Assembly: GCA_937967455.1 (NCBI GenBank)
Contig: CALCJK010000011.1
Coordinates: forward strand, 62,001-126,000
DNA: 64,000 bases
Direction of reading: 5' to 3'
DNA from: an uncultured bacterium
Lineage (GTDB): Bacteria > Bacteroidota > Ignavibacteria > UBA10030 > BY39
Shown here: piece after piece, positions 28,886 to 56,016 of the stretch
Layout: every line of letters begins with the position of its first letter
Position numbering within the stretch: position 1 is the first letter of the stretch
Translations under genes and position numbers: made by a program
The notes under the pieces: model-generated
What the model was told of the DNA's origin: nothing
The model's input: the letters and a program-made list of their open reading frames with translations, nothing else
The model's database searches: none

Positions 28886-28920
28886 TTAAACGATAAAGTT
28901 AATGATGCCTTTAACGATAA
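28886..28920. promoter_or_regulatory. Candidate regulator-binding direct repeats TTAAACGATAA / TTTAACGATAA
   Basis: Two 11-mers differing at one position (28886-28896 and 28910-28920), 24 bp apart, directly after a candidate promoter. Confidence 0.3.
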
Positions 28921-30563
28921 TGATAAAATTATTAAACAAAATTTGTTTATACCTTAACACGCAAATTTCTATTTGCGTAATCATATTTATCTTTTTTTTC
29001 TTCAATTTTATTTCCTGTCAAACAAAACTTCATTACTTAATTCAAGATGAAATACAACCGGTAAATGCACCTTTTGACATTAAGGAATTTAAAAGACCTA
29101 CTTTCAAACAAAATTATTTTGATATAAGAAATTATGGCGCTGTAGAAGGTGGAAAAATTAAATGTACAGAAGCAATTCGCGAAGCTATTCATCAAGCTTC
29201 TTTAGAGGGTGGTGGTTATATCATCATACCTGAGGGGAAATGGTTAACAGGTGCTATTCACCTTGATAATAATATCAATTTGTATCTTGATAAAAATGCT
29301 GAATTAATTTTTAGTCAGGAGCCTGAAGATTATTTACCAGTAGTTTTTGCAAGACATGAGGATGTTGAATGTTATAAATATTCCTCTTTCATTTATGCGA
29401 ATAATAAAGAGAATATTGCTATAACTGGTGCTGGAACTTTGAATGGACAGGGCAATTACTGGTGGGATTATAAAACTAAAAGGCGAGATAGTGAAATTTT
29501 ACTGTATGAAATGGGAAAAAATAATGTTCCTGTTGAAGAGAGAATTTTTGATGGAACCAATGACAGGGAACTAAGACCTGCATTCTTTCAACCAATGAAC
29601 TGTAAAAATGTACTTGTTGAGGGTGTAACGTTTTTATATGGTGCTTTCTGGACAATAACACCTACCTATTGCGACAATGTAATTATTAGAAAAATAAAAA
29701 TAATTACTTATGGAGATTTAGGAGATACTCCCAACGGTGATGGTGTTAACCCTTCATCTTCAACAAATGTTTTGATCGAAGATTGTGAATTTAGTACTGG
29801 TGATGATTGTATAGCCATTAAAGCCGGCCGTGATAACGATGGCTTACGGGTTAATAAACCCTGTGAGAATATCGTAATCAGAAATTGTAAAGGATTAATT
29901 GGACATGGTGGGATAGTTATAGGAAGTGAAACCTCTGGTGGAATACGTAATGTATTTGCAGAAAACTGTCAGTTTTATGGAACTGATAGAGTTGTTAGAA
30001 TAAAAACGACAAGAGGTAGAGGAGGCATAGTTGAAAATATGTGGTTTAAAAATCTTTCAGGAGATGATATTCAGAAAGAAGCTTTAAGAATTAATATGAG
30101 ATATAATCCACAGGGACCACTCGTAGAAAGATTACCAGCTCAACCTGTTACTGAATCTACACCAATAATTAGAAATATTCATTTTGAAAATATAAAAATC
30201 ACAAACAGCAAAAGTTATTCAATAGAACTACTTGGTTTACCGGAAATGTTAATGGATAACATTTCATTTAAAGATCTATCCATACATTCGATTAAAGGAA
30301 TAAATTTATCTGATGTTAATCGGATAAGTTTTAATAATATTATAATTAATTCAGAAAAGGAACCGGTTGTTGAAATTCTTGATGGAAAAAATATAGAATT
30401 TGAAAAAGTTGAATTCACAACCAAACACAAAAATTTGTTTAATATAAGGGGTCAAAATTCTCAAAATATTATTTTCAAAAAATCCCAAATTGGAGATATA
30501 AAAGAAACCTTTTTATTTAATGAAGGTGCTTCACATAAATCTATTATCATAGAAGATTATTGA
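28920..30563 (+). CDS. Glycoside hydrolase family 28 (polygalacturonase-like), probable lipoprotein
   Basis: Lipobox-like FNFISC; GH28 active-site elements NGDGVNPSSS, GDDCIAIKAG, GHGGIVIGSE, RIKTTRGRGG. ORF opens at 28902; ATG 28920 is preferred because it precedes the signal peptide. Confidence 0.9.
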   Translation: MIKLLNKICLYLNTQISICVIIFIFFFFNFISCQTKLHYLIQDEIQPVNAPFDIKEFKRPTFKQNYFDIRNYGAVEGGKIKCTEAIREAIHQASLEGGGYIIIPEGKWLTGAIHLDNNINLYLDKNAELIFSQEPEDYLPVVFARHEDVECYKYSSFIYANNKENIAITGAGTLNGQGNYWWDYKTKRRDSEILLYEMGKNNVPVEERIFDGTNDRELRPAFFQPMNCKNVLVEGVTFLYGAFWTITPTYCDNVIIRKIKIITYGDLGDTPNGDGVNPSSSTNVLIEDCEFSTGDDCIAIKAGRDNDGLRVNKPCENIVIRNCKGLIGHGGIVIGSETSGGIRNVFAENCQFYGTDRVVRIKTTRGRGGIVENMWFKNLSGDDIQKEALRINMRYNPQGPLVERLPAQPVTESTPIIRNIHFENIKITNSKSYSIELLGLPEMLMDNISFKDLSIHSIKGINLSDVNRISFNNIIINSEKEPVVEILDGKNIEFEKVEFTTKHKNLFNIRGQNSQNIIFKKSQIGDIKETFLFNEGASHKSIIIEDY

Positions 30564-30633: not shown

Positions 30634-33582
30634 ATGTTCAACCGGATGGGATTCGGTAATTCAGAAAATGAATACCGAAAGTTCAATCTTAATTTAATCA
30701 GTTTAACTAAATGGGGGTTAAAAGTTCTTTCAATATTACTGTTAATTCAAAATCTATGGGCTCAAAATGTAGGAAAAATATCTGGTGTTGTTAAAGATGC
30801 CGAAACAGGTGAACAGCTTATAGGTTGTAATATAATTATAGTGGGGACTTCCTTGGGTGCCTCAACTGATATAGAAGGTTCATATTTTATTTTGAATATT
30901 CCTCCTGGTAAATATGATGTTCAAGCATCGATGGTCGGTTACCAAACTGTAGTGCAGCGAGGTGCTATTGTTAATTCTGGAAAGACTACAACTTTAGATT
31001 TTAAATTGAGATCTGAGGCTTTAGTTCAAAAAGAGGTTGTTGTCGAAGCTGTTAGACCAGATGTAGAGAAAGAAAAAACCTCAACAAGCGTTATTATTCG
31101 TTCTGAAGATGTTCAAGCTATTGCTGGTATAAGAGATGTTGGTGATGTGTTAGGTTTAGCAGCAGACGTTATAGATGGACATTTTAGAGGTGGTCGAGTT
31201 GGTGAAGAGTATTATGTACTTCAAGGAATGGGGATTGTAAATCCACTTAACAATACAAGCGCATTCTTACCTATTATGAGTGCGGTTGAAGAGGTTGAGG
31301 TAATTACCAGTGGTTTTGGAGCACAATATGGAAATGCTCAATCAGGTATTGTTAATATTTCAATGAAAGAAGGCAAACCTGATAAATGGCGTACTACTGT
31401 TGAATCAAGAGTGAGAGTGCCAGGTAGAAAGCATTTTGGCCCGAGTGTATTTGACCCAGCTGCAAATCCGTATTTAGCATTATTATTAGATGAAGCTACC
31501 TGGTTGCAGGGAGACCCTCAAACCAATACTCCTTATTATACTTCTATGGGCTCTGGTTTGAAAGATAGATTTCGAGGAGATACTTTGGTTCAATTGCAAG
31601 TTGCAAGAACTTTGTGGCAACTACAAACAAAAAGAGATTTATATAGAAAGTACGGGAATATAATTGATTATTCTTTAGAAGCCGCAACTGGTGGGCCAAT
31701 TGACGAAAATATGCGAATGTTTCTTGCTCTCCGATCAAATACAAATTGGCCAATGTTCCCCACTGAACAACCAAATCTTCAACAACAGATAATGGGAAAT
31801 ATCGCAACCGAATTGTTCAAAGGTGCTTCATTAAGAGTAAGTGGCGGTTATTCTCAGGAATATTCTAATGTGTTCCCTGGATCTAATAGTCTGGGCTATT
31901 ATAATTGGTTGTGGGATAGAGTATTATCAATCAATTATCAAAAGACTACAAATGCTCAATTTGGTATGCGTTTTACACATACTTTGAGTACTAAAACTTT
32001 TTATGAGCTTAAATTCAGTTCATTAATCACTAAAAGAAGATTGGGTTCAACTCCTTCACCTGAGTCGATACCAGATTCTTTAATTGTTAATTCACAGAAT
32101 AAACAAATTGATTGGGACAAAATAATACCGCAAGTTGTTAAATCACCTGACGAATTTTATTATATGAGAGGTGCGGGTTTATTTAGAAATGAATTAACTC
32201 GCACCTTATCATTTGACGGATCCATATCTAGTCAAATTACTAAATCTCACCTCTTGAATGCAGGTATACAATTTAACACCTATTTAATAGATGTTTCTAA
32301 TAATTTAAATATCCGTGATGGCTCAGGTGGACCCGTGGAGTATTATAAAATTAAACCTCTTGAATTTGCAGCATATGCCCAGGATAAAATGGAATTTGAA
32401 GGATTAATTGCAAATGTTGGTTTACGACTTGATATATGGAGTTCACAAGCTAATTATTATTTAGATCAATTTGCTCCATTTAGAGTAATTGATTCTCTGG
32501 GTAATCCCATTAACGATCCTGTAGCTGCGCCTCAGAAAAAAGCTCCCGCATTAGCCCGCTTCCAGCCAAGAATTGGAATTTCTTTCCCGGTTTCAATCAC
32601 AACTGTGTTCCACTTAAATTACGGGTCGTTTATGCAAAGACCTTCGTTCCAATATATTGTTTCAACAAGAGTTAAACAAGCAAGGCTTGCACCAATAAGG
32701 TTGGGAAATCCAAAACTAGAACCTGAAACAACTAATAGCTATGATGTTGGTGTAATGCAGGGCTTAGGTGAGGGTTTCACACTCGATATAAGCGGATATT
32801 ATAAAGATGTCAAAAATCTTGTAGAAATGGCTACATTCACTTCGGATATGTCGTATGAAACTTATTTTAACAGAGATTATGCTGACATTAGAGGTTTTAG
32901 AGTTTCACTATCAAAAAGACGGGGCAACCTCATTGGCTCATTAAATTATCAATTCAGTTATGCAACAGGTAAAAGTGCAACAACAGAGAATGCTCCACCA
33001 GCTTTCATAAAAGATCCAGGTACAGGAGAAATTCAGGAGAAATTGGATAAAGTACCAGTAAGAGATATTATATTGAATTTTGATAGAACTCATAATTTAA
33101 TATTAAACCTTGCATATATTACAAAGAAAGAATGGGGACCTAAAATTTCCAAATTTTATCCACTCGAAAACTTAACTTTATCTCTAAATTCTTTCTTCAG
33201 AAGTGGAAGACCATATACATCATCTAAAAATCCGAAACTAATAAATGCAGCTCGTACTCCTAATGAATATAATGTAGATCTCAAGTTCATAAAACGAGTT
33301 AATAATTTGTTTGGGATGAATGTCAATTTCTATTTTGAAATATTTAATTTGTTTAACAATAAGATCTTGAATTACGATTATATTTTCTCAGTCCCCAATG
33401 CAGGTGCTACTAATAATAGAATCAAAGCATATGAAGAGTATCCTATTGATGATCCAAATTATGGTATCTTATATTGGCAGGATACTAATACACCATCTAA
33501 AGCTTTTGCTGTGGATCAGTCATTCCTAATTTACGATAATCAACCAAGGTCTTACTATTTCGGAATTATTATTGAATTTTAA
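30634..33582 (+). CDS. TonB-dependent receptor with N-terminal carboxypeptidase-regulatory-like domain
   Basis: GKISGVVKDAETGEQLIGCNIIIVGTSLGASTDIEGSYFILNIPPGKYDVQASMVGYQ, plug-domain region, barrel ending SYYFGIIIEF. Confidence 0.92.
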   Translation: MFNRMGFGNSENEYRKFNLNLISLTKWGLKVLSILLLIQNLWAQNVGKISGVVKDAETGEQLIGCNIIIVGTSLGASTDIEGSYFILNIPPGKYDVQASMVGYQTVVQRGAIVNSGKTTTLDFKLRSEALVQKEVVVEAVRPDVEKEKTSTSVIIRSEDVQAIAGIRDVGDVLGLAADVIDGHFRGGRVGEEYYVLQGMGIVNPLNNTSAFLPIMSAVEEVEVITSGFGAQYGNAQSGIVNISMKEGKPDKWRTTVESRVRVPGRKHFGPSVFDPAANPYLALLLDEATWLQGDPQTNTPYYTSMGSGLKDRFRGDTLVQLQVARTLWQLQTKRDLYRKYGNIIDYSLEAATGGPIDENMRMFLALRSNTNWPMFPTEQPNLQQQIMGNIATELFKGASLRVSGGYSQEYSNVFPGSNSLGYYNWLWDRVLSINYQKTTNAQFGMRFTHTLSTKTFYELKFSSLITKRRLGSTPSPESIPDSLIVNSQNKQIDWDKIIPQVVKSPDEFYYMRGAGLFRNELTRTLSFDGSISSQITKSHLLNAGIQFNTYLIDVSNNLNIRDGSGGPVEYYKIKPLEFAAYAQDKMEFEGLIANVGLRLDIWSSQANYYLDQFAPFRVIDSLGNPINDPVAAPQKKAPALARFQPRIGISFPVSITTVFHLNYGSFMQRPSFQYIVSTRVKQARLAPIRLGNPKLEPETTNSYDVGVMQGLGEGFTLDISGYYKDVKNLVEMATFTSDMSYETYFNRDYADIRGFRVSLSKRRGNLIGSLNYQFSYATGKSATTENAPPAFIKDPGTGEIQEKLDKVPVRDIILNFDRTHNLILNLAYITKKEWGPKISKFYPLENLTLSLNSFFRSGRPYTSSKNPKLINAARTPNEYNVDLKFIKRVNNLFGMNVNFYFEIFNLFNNKILNYDYIFSVPNAGATNNRIKAYEEYPIDDPNYGILYWQDTNTPSKAFAVDQSFLIYDNQPRSYYFGIIIEF

Positions 33583-33602
33583 AAAAGGAATGGATTATCA
33601 AA

Positions 33603-35789
33603 ATGAAATATCTTAAAGTCGCAATTGTTTTATTAATCGCAATTAATTCGCTATATGCACAACAGCGAGATTTCCGTATACATAAGAGAGGTATGTTGCA
33701 TCAAACTGTATTCAACACTGGGGAAGTTGGTCGAGCTTTTGATAATGGTACTGGTGGAGTTTTAATTGGATATCCATCTATGGAATGGCCACCAAATTCG
33801 TATACGATTATTGATAGAAAGACATATGCAGGGCAACATAATTCTTTTGGAGGCGGAATTCACATTGCTGGAACCGTTGGGGATGTTCGACAATATATAT
33901 ACTGTGGTGCTGTTACCGATGCAAATGGCAGAGCTACTCAGGTCGAAGGAGTTTATAGTTATCCAATTTCTATTGAAAGAATTGAAAATTATCCTTTGAA
34001 GGAAGATGGCACCATTAATCCGGATTATAATCCTGATGAAGCTGAAGAAAAGATTATAGCCAGATGGGGAACGCCACTCGGCGTAACCGTAACTCGAACA
34101 AGTCGCGCGTGGAGTTTCCCTGGTTATAATAGCTTTATAATTTATGAGTATGAATTGATCAATACTGGTACTGACACAGTTAAAGATGTTTTTGTTTCTT
34201 GGGTGTATGGGTTTATAACCTCAATGTTTGGATATGAGAGAAAATTTAATCGCTGGGCTGAAGCTGATACAAGATCGCAAGATCAATTTGCGAGGTTTGA
34301 TTTTAAAAGATATTTAACATATAATCATGATAGGGATGGTAAACCTGACTCAGTTTTTTTTGCAATTTGGTCACAACCAGGAGATCGTGGAAGCTTAAAT
34401 TCTCCACAAGCAGCGGGATTACTAATGCTTTATTATGATTATGACCACCTTGCAACACTCGGGAATACAGGTGTTTATGTGAGTCGATCTGATTCAATTG
34501 TAGTATGGGATGAGAATAATAAAATGAAACAACCCTGGTTAAATAGATATGAAAACAGCAATCTCTATCCAACGAAGCTTCAAACATGGTTAGATCCATT
34601 GAGCAGAAAGAGTAGTGTATTTAAATCTAAAACCGACTCAACATATTTTTATACAGATAATTATCATTGGATTGGGCGTGCCAAACCATCGCAGACACTT
34701 GGTTGGAGCCAACCAGCAGTCCATGGAATGGGTTATGGACCGTATATTTTACCACCAAATGAACCAGTTCGATTTGCAGTTGCTGAAGTTGTCGGTTATG
34801 GTCCAGGTGTAGCAAGTGATAGCGTTTATCAGGATCTTGGTGGTGGAATACGTGGAGAGCCCGAACCATACCTTCATCCAATCCCGAGTTGGTATTCAAA
34901 ATTAACTTATCAGTATGTAGGAAATCCTCCTTTTATTGGAAGCGATTATTTACAAAATTATCCACTCCCGTGGTATGTTACTCCTGGTGTAGTATCTATT
35001 AGAGATGTTGCTGATAGAGCTATTGAAATGTTTACAGGCAGACCCCTGATTAAATATGATACTATACAGTATGATCCAAAAAATTCCACTCCAGATGGTA
35101 AAGGTGTTTATAATACTGTCAAAATTCCATTTCCCGCACCTAATATAGTAATTGAAAATACTCAAGCTGGTGTGAATAAAATTATCTGGAAACCGGATGT
35201 AGAAGAATTTAATTCTTCCAGATTAAAAGCTCCATTAAGTCATTATCTGGTAATGAAATCAACTCATCCATTAGGTCCATGGGAAATAATTGATAGTGTT
35301 GGAATACGAGATTCAAGATATTTTTATGATTCAGTATATGTTGTGTTTGATGAAAAAAGTGAGGTCGGAAATTATTACTATTATGCAATATATTCAGTTG
35401 ATACGCTGGGCGAAAAGAGTGGAATGACAAACTTAACTCAGCATCAAACCAGATCACCAGCAGTTAAAAACCTTGGAGACCCAATAGGAAAAGTCTATGC
35501 AATTCCTAATCCTCTGATAGTTTCTAATGAAAAAGGAGGATTTGATCCTAGAGGAGAAATTACAGATAGAATCCAATTTTATGGGCTAACTAAACGATGT
35601 ACTATCAGGATATTTTCTTATAGTGGCCAGTTAATTCAAACAATAAAACATGATGAAGATTCTAATTATCAATCTTGGTTCCAAATATCAATTAATAATC
35701 AGATAATTGCTTCTGGTGTTTATTTCTTTGTTGTTGAAGATGAAGAGACTGGTTCAAGAGCGTATGGTAAATTTGTAATCATACACTAA
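33603..35789 (+). CDS. Large exported protein of unknown function, C-terminus resembling a T9SS sorting domain
   Basis: Signal peptide MKYLKVAIVLLIAINSLYAQ; C-terminal VYAIPNPL...CTIRIFSYSGQLIQTI...ASGVYFFVVEDEE...GKFVIIH. Confidence 0.75.
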   Translation: MKYLKVAIVLLIAINSLYAQQRDFRIHKRGMLHQTVFNTGEVGRAFDNGTGGVLIGYPSMEWPPNSYTIIDRKTYAGQHNSFGGGIHIAGTVGDVRQYIYCGAVTDANGRATQVEGVYSYPISIERIENYPLKEDGTINPDYNPDEAEEKIIARWGTPLGVTVTRTSRAWSFPGYNSFIIYEYELINTGTDTVKDVFVSWVYGFITSMFGYERKFNRWAEADTRSQDQFARFDFKRYLTYNHDRDGKPDSVFFAIWSQPGDRGSLNSPQAAGLLMLYYDYDHLATLGNTGVYVSRSDSIVVWDENNKMKQPWLNRYENSNLYPTKLQTWLDPLSRKSSVFKSKTDSTYFYTDNYHWIGRAKPSQTLGWSQPAVHGMGYGPYILPPNEPVRFAVAEVVGYGPGVASDSVYQDLGGGIRGEPEPYLHPIPSWYSKLTYQYVGNPPFIGSDYLQNYPLPWYVTPGVVSIRDVADRAIEMFTGRPLIKYDTIQYDPKNSTPDGKGVYNTVKIPFPAPNIVIENTQAGVNKIIWKPDVEEFNSSRLKAPLSHYLVMKSTHPLGPWEIIDSVGIRDSRYFYDSVYVVFDEKSEVGNYYYYAIYSVDTLGEKSGMTNLTQHQTRSPAVKNLGDPIGKVYAIPNPLIVSNEKGGFDPRGEITDRIQFYGLTKRCTIRIFSYSGQLIQTIKHDEDSNYQSWFQISINNQIIASGVYFFVVEDEETGSRAYGKFVIIH

Positions 35790-35803
35790 TAAAGGAATCA
35801 ATT

Positions 35804-36829
35804 ATGATTAGAAAAATATTTTTCTTTGTTTTGTTTTCACTACTAATTTTTAATTGCAACATATTTTCACAAAAGGTAGGAAGTACAGCGATGCAATTTT
35901 TAAAAGTAATGCCTTCTGCACGTGCAACTGCAATAGGTGATGCATATACCGTTCTTGCTTCAGGTGCTGATGCGGTTTTTTGGAACCCAGGAGGTATCGC
36001 AAAAATTGAAAAAATGGAATTTTCAACTACCTATATTAATTGGATCTTTGATACTAAACAGGGTGCATTTTCCTTCGCAACACCAATTATGGATTTTGGT
36101 GCTGTCGGACTTCAAATACAATATGTGGACTTTGGAGAATTTATCGAAACTTCAAATTTAGACCCTTATATTAAAAACCTTGATGGTCCTGGCATTACCG
36201 GAAGAACATTTAGACCTTTCAGTTATTTAATTGGGCTATCTTACTCAAAATTTTTAACTGATAGATTTTCTACTGGAATAGGAATTAAGTATGTTCACGA
36301 ATCACTTTATAATGGTCAAGAGGTAATTGCATTGGTTCGAACAGGTGGTTATGAAAAAGTAAAAACCTGGGCTAATGGGTTAATATTTGATTTTGGAATG
36401 TATTATAATACTGGATTCCATTCTGTTCAAATCGCCACGGCAGTACAGAATTTTGGTGCAAATGTAAAATATGCAAAAGAATCTAATCCTGTCCCGTTGC
36501 TCTTCAGATTTGGTATTGCAGCTAATGTAATTGGTTCAGATGCTCTGATATTAACTGAGGAAAATAATCGTTTAAGTATAGAATTTGATTTGTTTCAACC
36601 AAACGATTATGCTCAACAAGCTCATTTAGGCATGGAGTATGAATTCAGTGGTATTTTTGCAATTCGAACAGGATACAAAATTAATTACGATTACGAAGGA
36701 GTTACCCTGGGCGCAGGTTTAAAACATAATATTGCTGGACTTAACCTAATGATTGATTATAGTTATGGCTCAATTGGAAAATACTTAGGTAGTGTACATC
36801 GATTTAGTTTAGGAGCCCAACTTCAATGA
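35804..36829 (+). CDS. PorV/PorQ family outer-membrane protein
   Basis: Signal peptide; GSTAMQFLKVMPSARATAIGDAYTVLASGADAVFWNPGGIA; barrel-like C-terminus. Confidence 0.85.
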   Translation: MIRKIFFFVLFSLLIFNCNIFSQKVGSTAMQFLKVMPSARATAIGDAYTVLASGADAVFWNPGGIAKIEKMEFSTTYINWIFDTKQGAFSFATPIMDFGAVGLQIQYVDFGEFIETSNLDPYIKNLDGPGITGRTFRPFSYLIGLSYSKFLTDRFSTGIGIKYVHESLYNGQEVIALVRTGGYEKVKTWANGLIFDFGMYYNTGFHSVQIATAVQNFGANVKYAKESNPVPLLFRFGIAANVIGSDALILTEENNRLSIEFDLFQPNDYAQQAHLGMEYEFSGIFAIRTGYKINYDYEGVTLGAGLKHNIAGLNLMIDYSYGSIGKYLGSVHRFSLGAQLQ

Positions 36830-36840
36830 GGAATAATATC

Positions 36841-38316
36841 ATGAAAAAAATTAAAATTTTACAACTAACTTTACTAATTTTTAATTTTATATCTTATCCG
36901 CAAGGTTATGATAATCCTCTGAATATTCAAGGTATTAATCATACTAACAGTTTATCTGCATCATTAAGTGCAGTTGGAGATGTTTCAATCTTAGTAGATG
37001 ATGATGCCGGTATGTTATTTACGAATCCTGCTACTTTAAAATCAATTAAAGATTTACAATTTTCCGTTGGTGGTTTACAATATTATTCAAAAACCAGTCA
37101 GGTTCAACACTATACCCCATTGAAGTATTATTCAAATTTTAGTTTACTAATGGAAGGTTTAACTGACCTGATAAGTGATCCAGATACATCGCTTTCAGCT
37201 TCCAATCCTGGTGATACAGTTCAGCGTCCTTTTGATGCTATTAAACCTAACTGGTCAAAGTCAAAAAATTCGTTTATACCGGTTCACTTTATTGCAGCAT
37301 ATCCTATTTTATTATTTGATAAAAAATTTGTTGTAGCTGGTGGTGTTGTAAATTATATTGATTTGAACCATTACTATCAAAACAATAATGTTTTATCACC
37401 ACCTATCGGATCTGAAAGGCCGATACCTGTTCCATTGCCTCCTAACAATCCAGATTCGACATTTAAAACTTTATGGTCACAGTATATACGATCACGTGAA
37501 GGTTCGATCAGGGGCTATGGATTATCGCTAACAAATGTGTTATCTGAGAAAATTTCAATAGGAGTTAGCGGAATGTATCTTAATGGGACAAGCGATGATT
37601 TTGAATACAGATTAGGAAGAGGTAGGTTGGTGTTTTATTATAATTATTTCAGATTGGATTCAACAAATTTTAATAGAAGAGAAACAAGATCAGGTACATC
37701 TCAATTTAGAGGATATGAACTAACTCTGAGTGGTATTTATACAGGAAAGAACATCAATTTTAGCGTTACCATTAAACCGCCCAATACTATTATAAGAGAT
37801 TTTGATACAAATATTTTAACTCAGAGTCCTGATACATCTTATGAAGTCAGTTACAATGGTAATGATGAAATAAAGGTTCCATGGCGGGGTGCTGTGGCGA
37901 TGTCAATCAATTTATTGCAAAACTTGAAGTTGGGATTAGAATACGAGTATCGACCTTATGAGAATATGAAATATAAAAACCCTGAAGGTAAGGAAACAAA
38001 CCCCTGGATATCTGCATCAATATTTAAAGTTGGCATCTTGTATAATCCAATATACTGGCTTACGCTCCGAGCAGGTGTAAGAGGAGAATCAGAAATTTTT
38101 GAACCTGAAGGCAATCCACTAATTGGTGAACCTGTGCGCTATTCGATCTATTCAGCAGGGTTCGGTATTACATATGCTAATTTAATCTTTAATTTTACTT
38201 ATCAGTACTTCTTAATGAAATATCAAGATATGTGGCAAACTAATGTAAATTTTAATAAAGAGTTTAGAAATAGCTTAAAATTTGATTTAAAAATAAATTT
38301 TAATTTAAACGAATAG
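36841..38316 (+). CDS. OmpP1/FadL-like outer-membrane protein
   Basis: Signal peptide; SAVGDVSILVDDDAGMLFTNPATLKSIKDLQFSVGG; alternating barrel strands. Start chosen at internal ATG 36841. Confidence 0.7.
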   Translation: MKKIKILQLTLLIFNFISYPQGYDNPLNIQGINHTNSLSASLSAVGDVSILVDDDAGMLFTNPATLKSIKDLQFSVGGLQYYSKTSQVQHYTPLKYYSNFSLLMEGLTDLISDPDTSLSASNPGDTVQRPFDAIKPNWSKSKNSFIPVHFIAAYPILLFDKKFVVAGGVVNYIDLNHYYQNNNVLSPPIGSERPIPVPLPPNNPDSTFKTLWSQYIRSREGSIRGYGLSLTNVLSEKISIGVSGMYLNGTSDDFEYRLGRGRLVFYYNYFRLDSTNFNRRETRSGTSQFRGYELTLSGIYTGKNINFSVTIKPPNTIIRDFDTNILTQSPDTSYEVSYNGNDEIKVPWRGAVAMSINLLQNLKLGLEYEYRPYENMKYKNPEGKETNPWISASIFKVGILYNPIYWLTLRAGVRGESEIFEPEGNPLIGEPVRYSIYSAGFGITYANLIFNFTYQYFLMKYQDMWQTNVNFNKEFRNSLKFDLKINFNLNE

Positions 38317-38321
38317 GAGAT

Positions 38322-39923
38322 TTGATTATGAAAAAATTTTACAAAATTAGTTTAACAATCTTTTTAATCATTGTAACGACGACTTTATTATTCTCCCAGT
38401 CATTAGGTGATTACCGTTCTAATGGAAGTGGTAACTGGAGCAACACTGGTATCTGGCAAAGATACAATGGCACGACCTGGGTTAGCGCTTCAACTCCACC
38501 AACAGGTTCAGAAACTATTACAATACGTAGTGGTGATTCTATTTATATCAATGCGGTTGTTAACCTAACAGGTATTCTTAAAAATGAGGGTAAACTTGGT
38601 GGTACTAGCAGCTTAACAGTAAAATCGGGTGGTGTATACTCACATGATCAAAATAATGGATCGATTCCAGTTTGTACCTGGGAAGATGGATCTACTTGCC
38701 AGGTAACTGGTTATATAAGTGGTAGTAAGCCTAACAATTCAAATCAAAATTTTTATAATTTTATTTGGGATTGTTCTGGTCAGACATCAAATGTGGATGT
38801 TGCCTGGTATTACAATACAATAAATGGTGATATTACTATTAAAAATACTGGAACAGCTCGTCTTCAAATGACAAGTCCTGGAGCAGGTACACCAAATACA
38901 ATAGAAATTAAAGGTAACATCTATGTGTTGGGTGGTCAATTTTCTTCGAATGGTTCAAGCAGCCCAGCAGAAATTACTGTAAATACTTATGGAAATATTA
39001 TTGTTTTGGGAGATCCAGGTAATCTTGCAAGTGTCAATTTCTCGATAAGTAGAGGCTCAGGTCCAAATGTTACTTGGAATTTGTTTGGCGATTCACTTGT
39101 CATTGAAAATGCAACAACTCAAAATTCAGGCGGAGCAAAGTGCAAATTTGTTTTCTCTAAAGCTGGTGATCAATTTTTAAGAATTCAAAATGTAGCTTAT
39201 AGTACTTCAAGTGCTGCTATAAGTTTTGATGTTGCATCTGGTTCAATTCTTCATCTTGGTAGCACGCAGCTTACAGGATCATCTACAAGTAATACTGGTA
39301 GTTTTCGTGTATTGAGTGGTGCAACTATTTATTCTACACATCCAGGGGGAATTAATGGCAATATACAATGTACAGGTGAGACCGGTGGTGGTAATTACTT
39401 TGCAACTGATGCTAGTTATGGCTTCAATGGTACAGAAAATCAGGTTACGGGAATGATGATGCCTGATGTAGTTGAAAATTTGATTATTGATAATCCAACT
39501 ATCGTCGCACTTTCAAAACCCACAACAATTAATGGAGTTTTAAGATTAAAAGCTGGTGTGTTTGATAATACAATACCTTTCACTTTGGGACCAAACGGCT
39601 CAATTTCTTATGAAGGTGGTAGTTTGTTAGTTTCTGTTGATGAAAATTTAGATATACCCAATTCTTTTTATGTTTATCAAAATTATCCCAATCCATTTAA
39701 TCCTGTAACAAAGATTAAATTCCAGTTACCAAATGAATCTTATGTATCAGTAAAAATATTTGATCTGTTGGGTAAAGAAATTTCTACACTATTTGAAGGT
39801 AAAAGACCTGCTGGTTTCCATGAAATATCTTTTGATGGTTCAAATTTAAGTTCAGGAATTTATTCTTACAAAATTCAAACTGAAAAGAATATTGTTGTAA
39901 AGCAAATGATTTTACTTAAATGA
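38322..39923 (+). CDS. G8-like domain protein with T9SS type A sorting domain
   Basis: Signal peptide; SGNWSNTGIWQRYNG...SGDSIYINA resembles G8; C-terminal NYPNPFNPVTKIKFQLP...VKIFDLLGKEI...SSGIYSYKI...KQMILLK. Confidence 0.82.
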   Translation: MIMKKFYKISLTIFLIIVTTTLLFSQSLGDYRSNGSGNWSNTGIWQRYNGTTWVSASTPPTGSETITIRSGDSIYINAVVNLTGILKNEGKLGGTSSLTVKSGGVYSHDQNNGSIPVCTWEDGSTCQVTGYISGSKPNNSNQNFYNFIWDCSGQTSNVDVAWYYNTINGDITIKNTGTARLQMTSPGAGTPNTIEIKGNIYVLGGQFSSNGSSSPAEITVNTYGNIIVLGDPGNLASVNFSISRGSGPNVTWNLFGDSLVIENATTQNSGGAKCKFVFSKAGDQFLRIQNVAYSTSSAAISFDVASGSILHLGSTQLTGSSTSNTGSFRVLSGATIYSTHPGGINGNIQCTGETGGGNYFATDASYGFNGTENQVTGMMMPDVVENLIIDNPTIVALSKPTTINGVLRLKAGVFDNTIPFTLGPNGSISYEGGSLLVSVDENLDIPNSFYVYQNYPNPFNPVTKIKFQLPNESYVSVKIFDLLGKEISTLFEGKRPAGFHEISFDGSNLSSGIYSYKIQTEKNIVVKQMILLK

Positions 39924-40060: not shown

Positions 40061-41257
40061 ATGAAGCTTTATATTAAAATATTGCAGGTGTTTATAATGA
40101 TTTCTGTTGGCTGTGCCCAGCAAATTACGAAATTTTCAGACACTCTACCCTGGTCGGTTAGAATTGCCAATTCATTTATTATGCGGCATCCTGATTTCGC
40201 AGCATACGATTCACTGCATCCGAATATGAAGTGGAATTATGAACAGGGGTTTATTTTATATGCATTATATCAAACTTATCTACAAACTAAGGATAAGAAA
40301 TACTTAAATTTCATAATTGGAAATCTTGATAAGTATATAAAAGATAATGGTGAGATTGCAACATATAATTTAGAGGAATATAATATTGATAATATTTTAC
40401 CTGGAAGAGTTGTTCTAGAACTTTACCAGCTTACTGGACAGAATAAATACAGGCTTGCTGCTGATAAACTCAGAACACAATTAAGACAACATCCTAGAAC
40501 AAATGAAGGTGGATTTTGGCATAAAAAAATATATCCCTACCAAATGTGGTTGGATGGGCTTTATATGGCACAACCGTTTAGTGCAAAATATGCTCTGATG
40601 TTTGATGAAACTGAAATGTTTGAAGATATTGCAAATCAATTTTTATTTATCGCAAGACATACTTTTGATGAGAAAACCGGTCTATATTACCATGGATGGG
40701 ATGAGAGCCGACAACAGTTATGGGCAAATTCGGAAACTGGCTGTTCACCAAACTTTTGGTCAAGGTCAATAGGCTGGTTTATGATGGCATTAATTGATGT
40801 GTTGGATTATTTTCCTGAAACTTATAAAAAGCGGTCAGAACTTGTTAAGATTTTTTCTGATCTTTCAGAATCAATACTAAATTACAGAGATGAAAAATCT
40901 GGTTTATGGTATCAGGTGACAGACCAAATATCTAAGGAAGGTAATTATCTTGAAGCTTCAAGTTCCTGTATGTTTGGGTATTCATTTGCAAAAGGAGCAA
41001 ACAAAGGTTATTTAGATAAGAAATTTTTTAATATAGCGGAAGATGTGTTTAATTGTGTTATAAAAGAATTTGTTAGAATAGATGATAATGGATTTGTAGA
41101 TTTATATGGTACATGTAAAAGTGCTGGTTTGGGTGGTAAGCCTTATAGAGATGGAAGTTTTGAATATTACATTAGCGAGCCTATACGTATAAATGATATG
41201 AAGGGCATTGGAGCGCTAATATTGTTTTCTCTGGAGATTGAGAAAAATAAAAATTAA
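40061..41257 (+). CDS. Glycoside hydrolase family 105 (unsaturated rhamnogalacturonyl hydrolase), probable lipoprotein
   Basis: Lipobox-like MISVGC; (alpha/alpha)6 features WLDGLYMAQPF, WANSETGCSPNFWSRSIGWFMMALIDVLDYFP, SSSCMFGYSFAKG. Confidence 0.88.
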   Translation: MKLYIKILQVFIMISVGCAQQITKFSDTLPWSVRIANSFIMRHPDFAAYDSLHPNMKWNYEQGFILYALYQTYLQTKDKKYLNFIIGNLDKYIKDNGEIATYNLEEYNIDNILPGRVVLELYQLTGQNKYRLAADKLRTQLRQHPRTNEGGFWHKKIYPYQMWLDGLYMAQPFSAKYALMFDETEMFEDIANQFLFIARHTFDEKTGLYYHGWDESRQQLWANSETGCSPNFWSRSIGWFMMALIDVLDYFPETYKKRSELVKIFSDLSESILNYRDEKSGLWYQVTDQISKEGNYLEASSSCMFGYSFAKGANKGYLDKKFFNIAEDVFNCVIKEFVRIDDNGFVDLYGTCKSAGLGGKPYRDGSFEYYISEPIRINDMKGIGALILFSLEIEKNKN

Positions 41258-47249: not shown

Positions 47250-50200
47250 ATGTTTAAGAAAAATCTAATTTTTATAATAATAATTCTAACAATATTTAAT
47301 TTTGCATTTAGTCAGACGCAATTAACAGAAAATTGGGATTCTGGAAACACAATTCCTACTAGTAGTACACAAGCACCGAGTGTCCCGACTGATTATAATA
47401 CAAGTTCTGGGGTATGGACTTTAATGCGTTCATACAGACACGGTACAACTAATTATTCACCTCCTTATGCTTTGCGGTTGTTGAAAGGTACAGATACAGC
47501 ATATGCGATTACCCCAGTGCTCAATACTGTTGGGACTATCTCATTTTATGGATATGCGACAAGTGCAAAACCAATATTTATTTTCAAATCAACGAATGGT
47601 GGCACAAACTGGATCTTTGTTGATTCTGTACTTACTGGGAGTGGAGCTTTCGCTTATTGCTCAGTTACATTAAATGATCCTGCTAACAATATTAAACTAA
47701 AAATTCAGAACGGTACAGGAAATGTAAACGATATAAATGTCGATAATGTTGTTATAACTTCTTACACTACAGGAGCTCAAATTGATGTATCAACAAATTC
47801 ACTTACAAGTTTTGGTAACCTCGTTTATGGAAATACATCAGCTTCACAATCATATTCACTGTCGGGTACTGGTTTAACAAATGATTTAATTGTAACTGCA
47901 CCTTCAAACTTCCAAATAAGTTTAGACAATACTAATTTTTCAAGTACTATTAATCTTATTCCGGTAGATGGGAATGTTGCGAGTACAACAATTTACATTA
48001 ACTTTTCGCCCAACTCACCTGTTGGAACCATTACGAATGATATTCAACATACAAGTACTGGTGCAGCAACAAAATATGTTAGTGTTACTGGTACTGCTCT
48101 TGATATTGAACCAACAATTCAATCAAATATCACATTCGGGACTGTTACAGATACTTCGATTTTTGTAAATTTTTCAGGTGGTAATGGTAATAGAAGAATT
48201 CTTGTTGTGAGATCTGGAAATCCAGTCACTTTTTCTCCAATGGATGGTAATGCTATTTTTGGTGTGAATTCCAATTTTAACCTGGCAACAGATCAGGGCT
48301 CTGGAAATAAAGTAGTTTATGATGGTACAGGAAATAATGTCAATGTTATAGGCTTAACACAAAATACAATATATCATTTTGCTGTTTATGAGTATAATGC
48401 TGGCACTAACAATTCACAAAATTATTTAATAGTTTCACCTGGAACAGGTTCTCAAACAACTCAAGCAGTTCCAACACTCACAGTAACTCCTTTATCACTA
48501 TCATTTGGAAATGTTCTGATTGGTACAACTTCTATTGAGAAAACATATCAAATATCAGGAACAACATTAAACCCAACTACAGGTTCAATCAGTGTAACTG
48601 CACCAACTGGTTTTGAAGTTTCATTGTCGAGTGGTTCTGGATTTTCTTCTAATCTTAATATCCCATACATAGATGGAACACTTAACAATACAACAGTTTA
48701 TGTTAGATTCAAACCAACAGTTGTTCAAGTTTATTCTGGAGAAATAATTAATAGTGGAGGTAGTGCCAGTGCAAAAAATGTTGAAGTGGTAGGAAATGGC
48801 GTTGGACCATCAGTAGACAATGAATTTCAGGCTGAGGATGCTCTTTTGGTTAGTTCTTATATTATGTCCGACTATTCAGGGTATACCGGAACTGGTTATG
48901 TAGATCTTGGGGATAAAACAGGTGCATCAATAGAGATCGTGTTTAATCGAGAATCGGCAGCGACTGATACTGTTTCAGTGCGATATGCAAACGGTGCAAG
49001 TACCAGAAGTTTGACCATCTATTTAAATGATATTAACATGGGAACTTTATCATTTACTACAACAGGTAGTTGGACTACCTGGAATGTGGTGAAAAAAGTT
49101 TTAAGTTTAAATTCCGGAATTAATCGTTTAAAATTTGAATTAACAACAAATGCAGTAGGTCCAAATATAGACAAAATAAATATCAGTGGTCAGTTAGCGA
49201 CACCAATGTATAAGCTAACACTGCTTACAAGTGGTAATGGAAGTGTTTCTGCTAATCCTTCAGCTACTTATTATGAAGCTGGTACAATGGTGACTTTAAC
49301 TGCTATACCAAATTCTGGTTATAATTTTTATCGCTGGGGAGGTACAAATGAAAGTTTTCAAAATCCCATAAACATTATAATGGACTCACATAAAACTCAA
49401 ATTGGTATAATTTCACCACAGGATGGATTTGTGACCCCATTCCCGTATGAATCATCTCCTCGAGGATTTGCATCAGTTCCTGCACTCGGTTATTCACAAG
49501 GTACTACCGGTGGCAAAGGACCACATAAAGTTTATGTGACAAGCTCAACTCAATTTGCTGAATTAATGCTTAGAAGAGTTGATGTCGGTAAAGTTCTTAA
49601 TCTTCCTCCTCTTACTGTTTATATTGTTGGAACATTAGTGCCTGGATCAGGAGTAGCTGATAAAATCGATATAAAAGATGCTTACGATATCTCAATAATT
49701 GGAGTTGGTTCGGATGCAGGACTTAACGGATTGGGATTAAATGTAGTTCGCTCGAAAAATATTATTATTAGAAATCTTAAAATTACTAACGCTCCTATAG
49801 ATGGCATAACAATTGAAGCTGATGACTCAGAAGGAACTGGCAATCATATTTGGGTTGACCATTGTTCAATTTCAAATTGTTACGATGGTGCACTTGATGT
49901 TACACATGCAGCAGCTTATGTCACACTATCATGGAATCACTTTTATAAACACGATAAAACAAGTTTAGTTGGCGGTTCAGATAACCAGCCTTCAGATGTA
50001 GCATTCAAAGTTACATATCACCATAATTATTTTGATAGTACTGGTCAAAGACATCCACGTGTCAGGTTTGGTAAAGTGCATGTTTTAAATAACTATTATA
50101 GAAAAAATGTTTTATATGGTGTTTCATCAAATTGTGAAGCCGATGTACTTGTTGAAGGAAATTATTTTTATAATGTTCCAATTCCATACGAAAGTTTAAG

Positions 50201-51530
50201 AGTCGGAACTAACTATCCCGGAGATTTAGTTGCAAGAAATAATATATTAGCCGGAACAACAGGTCCTGGGTCAACTCGCGGAACCGCTTTTGAAGCATCT
50301 ACTTTCTATAACTATACAATCGATCCACCAGAAAATATACCGCAAATAGTTTCAACTTACGCAGGTAGTGGCAAATATGACTTTAGCTACGAATTTACAT
50401 CATCTACAAAGTATATTTTAAATGTTACAGCTTTAAATGGTTATGTGATTAAAAATCCAGACCAAACTGAATACGACAGTGGTGCAGTTGTCCAATTAAC
50501 TGCAATTCCAAATACTGGCTATCACTTCGTAGACTGGAGTGGTGATTTAACAGGTATCACTAATCCAACTGTCATTGAAATGAACAGTAATAAAAATGTT
50601 ACTGCAAATTTTGCTATTAATCAATATCTTATAATTGCATCGGCAGGGCCAAATGGTTCAATTTCTCCGTCAGGTAATATATATGTCAATTATGGAGATA
50701 GTGTCACTTTCACCTTCACACCATCAATAGGTTATCATATCGACAGTGTTTTTGTTGATAATGTTTATGTCGGCAATCCATCATATTACAAATTCGAAAA
50801 TGTAACCGGTAATCATGCAATTTTTGTTAAATTCGCTATCAACAAATATACAATAATTGCTACAGCTGGTAGCAATGGTAGCATTGTTCCTGAAGGGACT
50901 ATAATTGTGAATTATGGTTCGGACCAGATGTTTACTTTTTTACCAGATCAAAATTATCAGGTGGATAGTGTTTTCGTGGATGGAGCCTATATTGGATCAC
51001 CTGTTAGTTATACATTCCAAAATGTGACGAGTGATCACACAATTTTCGTGAAATTCAAAGCTTCAGAATCTGGAGTTAGCTTTAATGTCGAGCGTGGCTG
51101 GAATATGATTTCTCTACCCGTCATCGTTTCGAATAATCGAAAAGAAATCCTCTTCCCAGGTTCAATTTCAAGTGCTTATCTTTTCGATAATGGTTACCAA
51201 AGTAGTGACACATTGAATAATGGAGTTGGTTACTGGCTAAAATTTCCTTCCAATGCTGCTATAGATATAGCAGGTCAGTATATTACTTCTGCACAAATAC
51301 CAGTTAAAGCTGGATGGAATTTAATTGGCACTATATCAGTTCCAGTTTCTGTATCCAGTATTCAAATTACAAATCCATCAAGTTTTATTTCTAATTTTTA
51401 TGGTTATGAGAATGGATATTTTGTTGCTGATACATTATATCCAGGGAAAGCATACTGGATTAAGGTGAGTGAAGATGGTTTGATTCTGATGGGTGAAAAC
51501 TTGAAATCTAAAACAATGCAAATAAAGTAG
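47250..51530 (+). CDS. Multimodular pectate lyase family 1 with CBM6/35-like and Listeria-type B-repeat-like modules
   Basis: PL1 motifs IWVDHCSISNCYDGALDVT, LVGGSDNQ, YHHNYFDSTGQRHPRVRFGKVHVLNNYY; FQAEDALLVSS CBM-like; several GxVxxxP...GxxVxLTAxPxxGYxFxxW repeats. Confidence 0.88.
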   Translation: MFKKNLIFIIIILTIFNFAFSQTQLTENWDSGNTIPTSSTQAPSVPTDYNTSSGVWTLMRSYRHGTTNYSPPYALRLLKGTDTAYAITPVLNTVGTISFYGYATSAKPIFIFKSTNGGTNWIFVDSVLTGSGAFAYCSVTLNDPANNIKLKIQNGTGNVNDINVDNVVITSYTTGAQIDVSTNSLTSFGNLVYGNTSASQSYSLSGTGLTNDLIVTAPSNFQISLDNTNFSSTINLIPVDGNVASTTIYINFSPNSPVGTITNDIQHTSTGAATKYVSVTGTALDIEPTIQSNITFGTVTDTSIFVNFSGGNGNRRILVVRSGNPVTFSPMDGNAIFGVNSNFNLATDQGSGNKVVYDGTGNNVNVIGLTQNTIYHFAVYEYNAGTNNSQNYLIVSPGTGSQTTQAVPTLTVTPLSLSFGNVLIGTTSIEKTYQISGTTLNPTTGSISVTAPTGFEVSLSSGSGFSSNLNIPYIDGTLNNTTVYVRFKPTVVQVYSGEIINSGGSASAKNVEVVGNGVGPSVDNEFQAEDALLVSSYIMSDYSGYTGTGYVDLGDKTGASIEIVFNRESAATDTVSVRYANGASTRSLTIYLNDINMGTLSFTTTGSWTTWNVVKKVLSLNSGINRLKFELTTNAVGPNIDKINISGQLATPMYKLTLLTSGNGSVSANPSATYYEAGTMVTLTAIPNSGYNFYRWGGTNESFQNPINIIMDSHKTQIGIISPQDGFVTPFPYESSPRGFASVPALGYSQGTTGGKGPHKVYVTSSTQFAELMLRRVDVGKVLNLPPLTVYIVGTLVPGSGVADKIDIKDAYDISIIGVGSDAGLNGLGLNVVRSKNIIIRNLKITNAPIDGITIEADDSEGTGNHIWVDHCSISNCYDGALDVTHAAAYVTLSWNHFYKHDKTSLVGGSDNQPSDVAFKVTYHHNYFDSTGQRHPRVRFGKVHVLNNYYRKNVLYGVSSNCEADVLVEGNYFYNVPIPYESLRVGTNYPGDLVARNNILAGTTGPGSTRGTAFEASTFYNYTIDPPENIPQIVSTYAGSGKYDFSYEFTSSTKYILNVTALNGYVIKNPDQTEYDSGAVVQLTAIPNTGYHFVDWSGDLTGITNPTVIEMNSNKNVTANFAINQYLIIASAGPNGSISPSGNIYVNYGDSVTFTFTPSIGYHIDSVFVDNVYVGNPSYYKFENVTGNHAIFVKFAINKYTIIATAGSNGSIVPEGTIIVNYGSDQMFTFLPDQNYQVDSVFVDGAYIGSPVSYTFQNVTSDHTIFVKFKASESGVSFNVERGWNMISLPVIVSNNRKEILFPGSISSAYLFDNGYQSSDTLNNGVGYWLKFPSNAAIDIAGQYITSAQIPVKAGWNLIGTISVPVSVSSIQITNPSSFISNFYGYENGYFVADTLYPGKAYWIKVSEDGLILMGENLKSKTMQIK

Positions 51531-54767: not shown

Positions 54768-56016
54768 AATATTTCTGTTTTTATTTTTTAATTTATCTCT
54801 TGGATATTGTACTGAACGAGCAGATATTATTGTTGCACAAGATGGAAGTGGTCATTTTACATCAATTCAAGCAGCACTCGATTCTGTTCCAGACTCTCCC
54901 GATAGATATTGGATTATTTTAATTAAAAATGGTGGATATAGAGAGAAATTGTTTATAACAAAGAGTAAGGTTTGTCTTGTTGGGGAAGACCGTGAAAAAA
55001 CTATAGTAATTTATCCGGAGTTAAGAAAAAATTGGCGTGCAAATAATCCTGACGATTGGGGTGCTGCAGTAATTAATATCGGAAATGAAGTTACAGACAT
55101 TGTACTTGCAAATCTTACAATTTATAATAACTATGGTTCATTGTACGAAGATCATGATCATCAATTTGCAATTCGTAGTGGTGGTAATTCCAATAGAATA
55201 ATTATTGTAAACTGCAATGTTTGGGCAGATGGTGGAGATACGGTTAGTCTATGGAATAGCAATTCGGGTATGTATTATCACGCAAATTGTGATTTTAAAG
55301 GTTGGGTCGATTATGTTTGCCCAAGAGCTTGGTGTTACATAACTGATAGTAAATTTTATGGCTTCAATAAAACAGCAAGCATCTGGCACGATGGCAAAGC
55401 CGATAGCACAATGAAATTTGTAATCCGAAATTCTGAATTTGATGGAGTTGATGGCTTCCCACTTGGTCGTTATCATCACGATGCGCATTTCTTTCTTGTT
55501 GATTGCAAATTCTCAAAAACGATGAAAGATCAGCCAATATATCCTGCTTCTGATTCGTCTAAATATAAATGGGGACAGAGAAAATATTTCTGGAATTGTC
55601 ATCGAGATGGTAATGATTATGCCTGGTATGCAAATAATTTAAATTCGGCCTATGAAGGAGCCGTTGAGGAAAAACAAATTACAGCATTATGGACATTTAA
55701 AGGTAAATGGGATCCAGAACGCACAATGCCAGCAGTTCTGCCATTTACAAGTATTCCTCATCCCAGAAATGGTGCTTATAGTGTATCTTCGGAAAATGTT
55801 GATACATTAAGATGGATTGGTGGTAGGAATGCTGTTTCATATAATATATATTTTTCTAATGATAACCCTCCAAAGTTTACAAAAAATCTAAAAGAGAATT
55901 TTTACATTCTCAATGATTTAAAACCAGCTCATTCATATTATTGGCGTGTAGATGTAGTAACAGAAAACGATACAATTATCGGAGATTTATGGACTTTCAC
56001 AACAAAATCAAACTAA
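54748..56016 (+). CDS. Divergent pectinesterase family protein (CE8-like) with C-terminal Fn3-like domain
   Basis: IIVAQDGSGHFTSIQAALDSVPD, GDTVSLWNSNSGMYYHANCDFKGWVDYVCP, LGRYHHDAHFFLVDC; C-terminal DTLRWIGGRNAVSYNIYFS...YYWRVDV. Confidence 0.78.
   Translation: MLSYINKIFLFLFFNLSLGYCTERADIIVAQDGSGHFTSIQAALDSVPDSPDRYWIILIKNGGYREKLFITKSKVCLVGEDREKTIVIYPELRKNWRANNPDDWGAAVINIGNEVTDIVLANLTIYNNYGSLYEDHDHQFAIRSGGNSNRIIIVNCNVWADGGDTVSLWNSNSGMYYHANCDFKGWVDYVCPRAWCYITDSKFYGFNKTASIWHDGKADSTMKFVIRNSEFDGVDGFPLGRYHHDAHFFLVDCKFSKTMKDQPIYPASDSSKYKWGQRKYFWNCHRDGNDYAWYANNLNSAYEGAVEEKQITALWTFKGKWDPERTMPAVLPFTSIPHPRNGAYSVSSENVDTLRWIGGRNAVSYNIYFSNDNPPKFTKNLKENFYILNDLKPAHSYYWRVDVVTENDTIIGDLWTFTTKSN

What the first reader, a model, noticed from the sequence alone, without database searches (positions are those of the whole stretch)
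30634..38316. SusD-less outer-membrane gene set (TBDT + 728-aa secreted protein + PorV/PorQ-like + FadL-like) in a pectin locus
Bacteroidota glycan loci usually pair a SusC-type TonB receptor with a SusD lipoprotein. Here the receptor (30634-33582) is followed by a 728-aa exported protein of unknown function with a T9SS-like C-terminus, then a PorV/PorQ-like barrel and a FadL-like barrel. I see no SusD-like ORF anywhere in the window. The four-gene block could be an alternative glycan-capture/uptake system, with the 728-aa protein acting as surface ligand-binding partner. The functional assignment is inference.
Basis: partly seen in the sequence, partly recalled or inferred. Interest (0 to 1): 0.72.

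Follow-up and report, generated by a model that had tools for sequence, protein, structure and literature searches.

The report
T9SS-linked, SusD-free polyuronate uptake cassette
Four neighbouring outer-membrane genes in a pectin-digestion locus turn out to be a strictly conserved cassette, found in more than fifty related bacterial loci, mostly beside genes for digesting pectin, alginate and similar acidic sugars, and they probably do the job of the classic SusC/SusD sugar-import pair with an unrelated surface protein exported by its own dedicated carrier.

Summary
TBDT (30634-33582), a 728-aa secreted protein (P728, 33603-35789), a PorV-family barrel and a FadL-fold barrel are packed head to tail in a pectin locus; the whole genome has no SusD. 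P728 matches no Pfam/NCBIfam family over cut-off. Hosts include Ignavibacteriota, KSB1, Calditrichota, Neomarinimicrobiota and other Bacteroidota. 45 of 68 loci carry polyuronate enzymes (pectin, PL17/alginate, PL6), against 0 of 12 more distant TBDT-P728-PorV loci, which lack the FadL gene. P728 models confidently as an N-terminal beta-rich part, an FN3-like domain and a T9SS-type C-terminal domain. That domain is a distinct class, and PorV genes follow it, not ordinary type-A tails. The cassette also sits, annotated but uninterpreted, in the published alginate locus of Rhodothermus marinus (PMC9530828). Best reading: a SusCD-like import system for polyuronates whose surface partner is T9SS-delivered by its own PorV carrier. 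Conservation is shown; binding, complex formation and transport are inferred.

The parts
30634..33582 (+). TonB-dependent receptor of the cassette (982 aa), with CarboxypepD_reg_2 N-terminal extension; not SusC-family by curated cut-off
   Evidence: TIGR04056 50 bits against cut-off 368; paralogues; conserved position
33603..35789 (+). P728: secreted 728-aa protein, proposed surface partner of the TBDT
   Evidence: (AF2 pLDDT 86.3, pTM 0.87)
33603..33659 (+). Sec-type signal peptide of P728 (residues 1-19, ...SLYA|QQ), no lipobox Cys
   Evidence: read from the sequence; helix 2-18 in the model
33660..35121 (+). P728 N-terminal beta-rich part, about residues 20-506; distant resemblance to the beta-sandwich domains of GH116/GH94-type sugar enzymes (domain boundary approximate)
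   Evidence: 5ost, 9ju0, 5nz7; E about 1e-5 to 1e-6, TMq 0.22-0.25
35145..35451 (+). P728 FN3-like domain, about residues 515-616 (boundary approximate)
   Evidence: secondary structure; many FN3 hits
35481..35786 (+). P728 C-terminal T9SS-type domain, about residues 627-728, of a class distinct from ordinary type-A tails
   Evidence: (PorZ 5m11)
35804..36829 (+). PorV/PorQ-family outer-membrane barrel, proposed dedicated T9SS carrier of P728
36826..38316 (+). FadL-fold outer-membrane barrel, nearest solved structures BamG and FadL
   Evidence: pLDDT 85.5; 9hiv_F E 7.9e-18; 3dwo E 1.0e-15
38322..39923 (+). T9SS type-A-tail protein (533 aa) that recurs directly behind the cassette in the pectin clade
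28902..30563 (+). GH28 galacturonidase/polygalacturonase directly upstream
   Evidence: 130 bits, cut-off 22.9
40061..41257 (+). GH88/105-type unsaturated uronyl hydrolase
   Evidence: 370.9 bits
41238..42374 (+). LacI-family regulator
47250..51530 (+). Pectate lyase (PL1) with CBM6
51542..53071 (+). Pel9A-like pectate lyase with T9SS tail
53085..54767 (+). Second GH28
54748..56016 (+). Pectinesterase

Best explanation
The four genes encode a SusCD-analogous outer-membrane import system for acidic (uronic-acid) oligosaccharides, here from pectin. P728 is made with a Sec signal, carried through the T9SS translocon by its C-terminal domain and handed to its own PorV-family carrier, encoded directly downstream. 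At the surface it sits on or next to the TBDT as ligand-capturing partner, in the place SusD takes in SusCD. The TBDT then pumps the oligouronide in with TonB energy. The FadL-fold barrel is an accessory of the polyuronate version, most likely a membrane scaffold or anchor for the complex (as BamG is for BamH) rather than a hydrophobic-compound channel. SHOWN: gene content, order and conservation, CTD class, PorV linkage, predicted folds, genomic link to polyuronate enzymes. INFERRED: binding, complex formation, carrier specificity, transported ligand, FadL role.
For: 53 of 54 copies with adequate flanks keep TBDT-P728-PorV-FadL in order. 45 of 68 of these loci carry polyuronate enzymes against 0 of 12 for the deeper, FadL-less relatives; nearby families are GH28, GH88, PL17 alginate lyase/heparinase, chondroitinase-B-like PL6, KDPG aldolase, KDG kinase, KdgF-type cupin and DEH-reductase-type SDR. 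All 11 pectin-labelled P728s fall in one 19-row clade (SH-aLRT 100) spanning several phyla; the substrate label changes 6 times on the tree against 14 or more in 300 shuffles. The four proteins' distance matrices correlate at 0.87-0.95. P728-type CTDs form a class of their own: paralogues not used for training score 47-80 bits with the P728 tail profile and 6-14 with the generic one. Of 94 PorV-family genes in these loci 81 follow a P728-family gene directly, while of 138 ordinary type-A-tail proteins one, the PorU-like gene beside the presumed core PorV, is followed by one. SprA, the T9SS translocon, is in 41 of 41 cassette genomes. The pattern TBDT-P728-like-PorV recurs at four further places in this genome. 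The same four genes stand in the R. marinus alginate PUL as tonB-hypA-hypB-hypC (PMC9530828). Cognate-carrier logic is demonstrated for type B CTDs and SprF-like shuttles encoded directly downstream (PMC12618676).
Against: No binding, expression or complex data. No co-folding of TBDT with P728 was possible. The N-terminal fold match is distant (TMq 0.25 or less) and does not show sugar binding. Type A CTDs are so far all reported to use one general PorV (PMC12618676), so a dedicated carrier is unproven. 23 of 68 loci show no recognised polyuronate enzyme, though 11 of those are under 13 kb. Loci were fetched by P728 similarity, so PorV genes elsewhere are under-sampled; in this genome 11 PorV-family genes exceed the cut-off and 6 of them lie in such modules. 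Correlated trees also reflect shared descent of an operon. SprA is common in these lineages, so 41 of 41 is necessary rather than discriminating.
Confidence: 0.6

Rival explanations
1. P728 is a cell-surface glycan-binding protein or adhesin that holds the bacterium or its lyases on the polymer; it is co-expressed with the TBDT but is not part of an uptake complex.
For: Many T9SS-exported beta-sandwich/FN3 proteins are adhesins or binding modules (established knowledge); the N-terminal part resembles sugar-enzyme sandwich domains without a catalytic barrel; a tandem P728 pair with one TBDT exists (L116).
Against: An adhesin would not be expected to track one TBDT family gene by gene in 53 of 54 copies and in FadL-less paralogous modules outside glycan loci. 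Other T9SS-tail proteins in the same loci vary in number and position.
Confidence: 0.2
2. The PorV-family and FadL-fold barrels are assembly factors or anchors, not a T9SS carrier: PorV acts like PorQ and FadL like BamG, jointly holding P728 and the TBDT at the surface.
For: The FadL-fold protein's nearest solved structures are BamG (9hiv_F, 9n2d_B), which anchors a surface lipoprotein with a carbohydrate-binding fold (PMC12611786); the PorV family includes PorQ, an attachment-complex part.
Against: PorV genes directly follow P728-type CTD genes in the way SprF-like carriers follow type B CTD genes; the deep clade keeps PorV but never the FadL gene.
Confidence: 0.3
3. The TBDT imports something other than the polysaccharide, such as a cofactor or a metal, and the unit merely travels with polyuronate genes.
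For: Deep-clade and paralogous modules sit by housekeeping genes (ribosomal genes at C1; clpX- and tig-like genes in L143), so the module type is not intrinsically for glycans; some NCBIfam hits of the TBDT are haem or B12 receptors, all below cut-off.
Against: The polyuronate association is specific to the FadL-bearing clade and follows substrate on the tree; the R. marinus copy lies inside a catabolic alginate PUL (PMC9530828).
Confidence: 0.1
4. P728 is an enzyme (lyase or hydrolase) of an undescribed family acting at the surface.
For: N-terminal resemblance to domains of GH116, GH94 and related enzymes; location among lyases.
Against: The matched part appears to be the non-catalytic sandwich domain; no (alpha/alpha)6 or (beta/alpha)8 domain is evident in the model's secondary structure; the few invariant residues are mostly G, P and aromatic; one partner family goes with pectin, alginate and PL6 loci.
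Confidence: 0.08

Closest known systems
SusC/SusD (RagA/RagB) glycan import of Bacteroidota
   Same: A TBDT with a carboxypeptidase-regulatory N-terminal extension encoded next to an obligate-looking surface partner inside a polysaccharide locus; likely the same division of labour.
   Different: The TBDT is far below the SusC/RagA cut-off (50 against 368 bits); the partner is a beta-rich T9SS-type protein, not a helical SusD lipoprotein; two extra barrels; SusD absent from this genome.
Rhodothermus marinus alginate PUL (tonB-hypA-hypB-hypC; PMC9530828)
   Same: The same four-gene order with matching gene products (TBDT, T9SS type A sorting domain protein, PorV/PorQ family, hypothetical), beside characterised alginate lyases; locus L181 of genome G012 is compatible with the printed hypA, hypB and hypC lengths (2,181, 1,056, 1,398 nt).
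   Different: Alginate instead of pectin; there listed as TonB receptor plus hypothetical genes and not recognised as a conserved system.
Type B CTD / SprF (PorP-like) cognate carrier pairs of F. johnsoniae (PMC12618676)
   Same: A CTD-bearing secreted protein with its own outer-membrane carrier gene directly downstream; several such pairs per genome.
   Different: Here the carrier is PorV-family and the tail is a type-A-like variant, for which only one general PorV has been reported; a TBDT is part of the unit.
BamG/BamH of the Bacteroidota BAM complex (PMC12611786)
   Same: The fourth gene's product shares the FadL fold and is closest to BamG.
   Different: 37 bits against a BamG cut-off of 250; linked to a TBDT operon, not to BAM.

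Membership tests
SusC/SusD import pair | SusD/RagB-family partner (PF07980) | tested here: not met
   No match in the genome; P728 hits no SusD model and models as beta-rich
SusC/SusD import pair | SusC/RagA-family TBDT (TIGR04056 over cut-off) | tested here: not met
   50 bits against 368.25
SusC/SusD import pair | TBDT paired with a conserved partner gene in a glycan locus | tested here: met
SusC/SusD import pair | Partner caps the TBDT and binds glycan | not testable with these tools
   No co-folding or binding assay available
TonB-dependent receptor | Plug plus 22-strand barrel homology | tested here: met
   Own Pfam hits only the CarboxypepD_reg domains, but about 29-45% identity to same-genome paralogues over plug and barrel stretches, two of which carry Plug and b-barrel over cut-off
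T9SS type A cargo | C-terminal Por_Secre_tail domain over cut-off | tested here: not met
   17.3 bits against 27 (Pfam); 17.8 against 23 (TIGR04183)
T9SS type A cargo | CTD fold/homology to solved T9SS CTDs | tested here: met
   PorZ 5m11: Foldseek E 3.1e-6; profile E 0.019 over the last 107 positions (weak)
T9SS type A cargo | T9SS machinery in the genome | tested here: met
   SprA over cut-off; PorU-type C25 protease next to a PorV gene
T9SS type A cargo | Secretion dependent on the CTD and PorV | not testable with these tools
   needs experiment
PorV/PorQ family | NF033709 over cut-off | tested here: met
   215.8 against 90 bits
Core T9SS PorV (equivalog NF033710) | Score over cut-off | tested here: not met
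   83.2 against 250 bits
FadL/OmpP1 family | FadL-type barrel fold | tested here: met
   Model matches FadL and BamG, TMt 0.62-0.70; Pfam Toluene_X below cut-off
BamG | NF053685 over cut-off | tested here: not met
   37.3 against 250 bits

The most novel reading that the evidence does not exclude
A general class of SusD-independent TonB import systems exists across the FCB group in which each receptor has a T9SS-exported surface partner with its own PorV-family carrier; the polyuronate branch added a FadL-fold barrel. This would couple T9SS carrier diversification to nutrient uptake and overturn the view that type A cargo uses one PorV.
Probability: 0.45. Interest if true: 0.85.

Novelty: new variant of a known kind. 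Interest (0 to 1): 0.72.

Why it matters
SusCD is treated as the hallmark of glycan uptake in Bacteroidota, and PUL searches commonly rely on it. A conserved SusD-free cassette would explain how Ignavibacteriota, KSB1, Calditrichota and relatives take up pectin and alginate fragments, would give a marker for finding such loci, and would tie several uncharacterised protein families to one testable function. The PorV linkage makes the question of carrier specificity for type-A-like CTDs directly testable, and a cultivated organism (R. marinus) has the cassette next to characterised alginate lyases and, elsewhere, a SusCD pair as internal control.

Tried and rejected
Rejected: 'SusD-like fold of P728' (beta-rich model, no SusD among the 50 listed matches). 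Rejected: 'pectin-specific' (alginate/PL17 and PL6 loci). Rejected: 'SusD-less by necessity of lineage' (SusD in 13 of 41 cassette genomes; 213 of 396 in the phylum sample). First PL6 counts were inflated by a T9SS tail in the query and were redone with the tail removed. hhalign of P728 against the 1018- to 1243-aa paralogue groups aligned only the C-terminal domain, so full-length homology is claimed only for the 713-aa group. Duplicate contigs (L177, L186, L188-L190, L206) were removed before counting. Literature searches for SusD-free systems or this cassette found only the R. marinus annotation; most subscription papers are not in the library.
Full report
THE SEQUENCE. The window is part of a 2.55-Mb, 99% complete genome. 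Its neighbours form a true pectin locus: GH28 twice, GH88, PL1 pectate lyase with CBM6, Pel9A-like lyase, pectinesterase, LacI regulator, MFS transporter, SDR and further genes. SusD is absent from the whole genome.

THE PROTEINS. The TBDT has a carboxypeptidase-regulatory extension but lies far under the SusC/RagA cut-off. P728 has no Pfam or NCBIfam family over cut-off and, as a profile of 46 homologues, matches only the PorZ C-terminal domain among solved proteins (E 0.019, weak). Its AlphaFold2 model is confident (pLDDT 86.3, pTM 0.87): signal peptide, a large beta-rich N-terminal part, an FN3-like domain and a C-terminal Ig-like domain. Foldseek relates the N-terminal part distantly to the sandwich domains of GH116, GH94 and dextran dextrinase, and the C-terminus to PorZ (which residues match which target is my reading from match lengths and secondary structure). 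The third protein is PorV/PorQ family (215.8 bits, cut-off 90) but far below the cut-off for core PorV; the presumed core PorV of this genome is at C10 next to a PorU-type C25 protease. The fourth models as a FadL-fold barrel (pLDDT 85.5), nearest to BamG and FadL.

CONSERVATION OF THE UNIT. Forty-eight named loci and further places in 396 phylum genomes, of which 49 had a match, were read. In the close clade (profile score over 600; 69 copies in 68 non-duplicate loci) 54 copies have enough flank to judge, and 53 have TBDT, P728, PorV and FadL in order on one strand. The exception, L116, is a tandem P728 pair at a contig end. Hosts by record title include Ignavibacteriota, KSB1, Calditrichota, Neomarinimicrobiota and Bacteroidota; the titles Caldisericaceae (L140) and Actinomycetota (L144) are probably mis-assigned MAGs. 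Twelve deeper relatives keep TBDT (11 of 12; the other is at a contig edge) and PorV (12 of 12) but never the FadL gene.

WHAT IT TRAVELS WITH. Of 68 close-clade loci 17 carry PL6-type, 14 PL17/alginate-type, 13 pectin-type and 1 sulfatase/GH88-type genes; 23 none, 11 of these being under 13 kb; the 12 deep-clade loci carry none. Pfam scans of 174 neighbours give the same picture. On the P728 tree the 11 pectin-labelled rows lie in one 19-row clade (SH-aLRT 100) drawn from several phyla, and the substrate label needs 6 changes against a shuffled mean of 18.8 and minimum of 14 (the shuffles ignore relatedness). So the cassette follows substrate at least as much as host.

THE CTD-PorV LINK. Within this genome there are two tail classes. 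Ordinary type A tails (YPNPFNP...) score about 118-144 bits with a generic profile (built from them) and 11-25 with a P728-tail profile; tails of the P728-like paralogues, which were not used for training, score 47-80 with the P728 profile and 6-14 with the generic one. In the fetched loci 81 of 94 PorV-family genes directly follow a P728-family gene, and of 138 ordinary-tail proteins only the PorU-like one is followed by a PorV gene. A less biased view is the 11 PorV-family genes over cut-off in this genome: 6 are in or beside TBDT/P728-like modules, one is next to PorU, and the others are elsewhere. The modules lie at C11 (this one), C33 (713-aa full-length homologue, hhalign E 1.7e-33), C9 and C1 (two; larger proteins sharing at least the C-terminal domain). 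Type B cargo of F. johnsoniae uses cognate carriers encoded directly downstream (PMC12618676), so a dedicated PorV for P728 is the natural inference; it has not been shown for type-A-like tails.

SusD. SusD is missing in 28 of 41 cassette genomes and sparse in the rest, missing in 13 of 15 sampled genomes of the same order outside the family, and present in 213 of 396 of the phylum sample. Yet R. marinus has SusC/SusD for xylan (PMC6987092) and Melioribacter roseus has SusCDE for starch (PMC3534657). The cassette is therefore better seen as a parallel system for acidic glycans than as a substitute in lineages without SusD.

PRIOR SIGHTING. The R. marinus alginate PUL (PMC9530828) lists kdgA, kdgK, tonB (2,805 nt), hypA (2,181, T9SS type A sorting domain), hypB (1,056, PorV/PorQ family), hypC (1,398, hypothetical), alyRm1, alyRm4 and so on. 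The four genes were drawn but not interpreted as a system there; no other paper in the library was found to describe them together.

MECHANISM. Most likely P728 is exported by T9SS through its own PorV carrier and serves as the TBDT's surface ligand-binding partner; the TBDT imports oligouronides; the FadL-fold barrel scaffolds the polyuronate version. Shown are conservation, predicted folds, tail class and genomic association. Inferred are binding, the complex, carrier specificity and ligand. The main alternatives are a surface adhesin or polymer-binding protein, and an anchoring role for both small barrels.

JUDGEMENT. A real, strongly conserved and, as far as the library shows, unrecognised system: a new variant of TonB-dependent glycan import. 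Interest 0.72.

Noticed in passing
G000:C1:90024-110830 (loci L026, L027): Two TBDT / large P728-tailed protein / PorV sets in a row plus a third P728-tailed protein and PorV gene, next to the rplQ-rpoA-rpsD-type ribosomal operon: a likely housekeeping use of the same module.
   Followed up: partly
G000:C33:18582-28708 (locus L030): A 713-aa full-length P728 homologue, a T9SS protein, a 594-aa possible lipoprotein, a TBDT and a PorV gene, conserved in relatives (L085, L090; partly L093).
   Followed up: partly
L116:7755-12184: Tandem P728 genes between one TBDT and one PorV gene.
   Followed up: no
window 38322-39923: The T9SS-tail protein directly behind the cassette recurs there in most pectin-clade loci (about 530-1030 bits); it may be a pectin-binding member of the unit.
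   Followed up: partly
L112, L114, L117, L119, L123-L126, L138, behind the FadL gene: A conserved ~260-aa lipoprotein-like gene (PLxVGNxWTY motif), often with a ~226-aa OMP_b-brl gene, follows the cassette in the PL6/sulfatase subclade; no Pfam for the first.
   Followed up: no
L141-L145 behind PorV: In deep-clade loci a large T9SS-tail protein and a ~310-aa TPR-like gene follow TBDT-P728-PorV.
   Followed up: no
L140, L144: Records titled Caldisericaceae and Actinomycetota carry the cassette or its deep relative, and SprA; probably misnamed or mis-binned MAGs.
   Followed up: no
window 27525-28625: DUF1016-N plus DNA-methylase-like match on a 366-aa ORF between an acyl-CoA dehydrogenase and the pectin locus; odd domain pairing, unexplained.
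   Followed up: no
G000:C1:50242-53631 (locus L217): A 508-aa CTD protein with a tail intermediate between the two classes, followed by two PorV-family genes.
   Followed up: no
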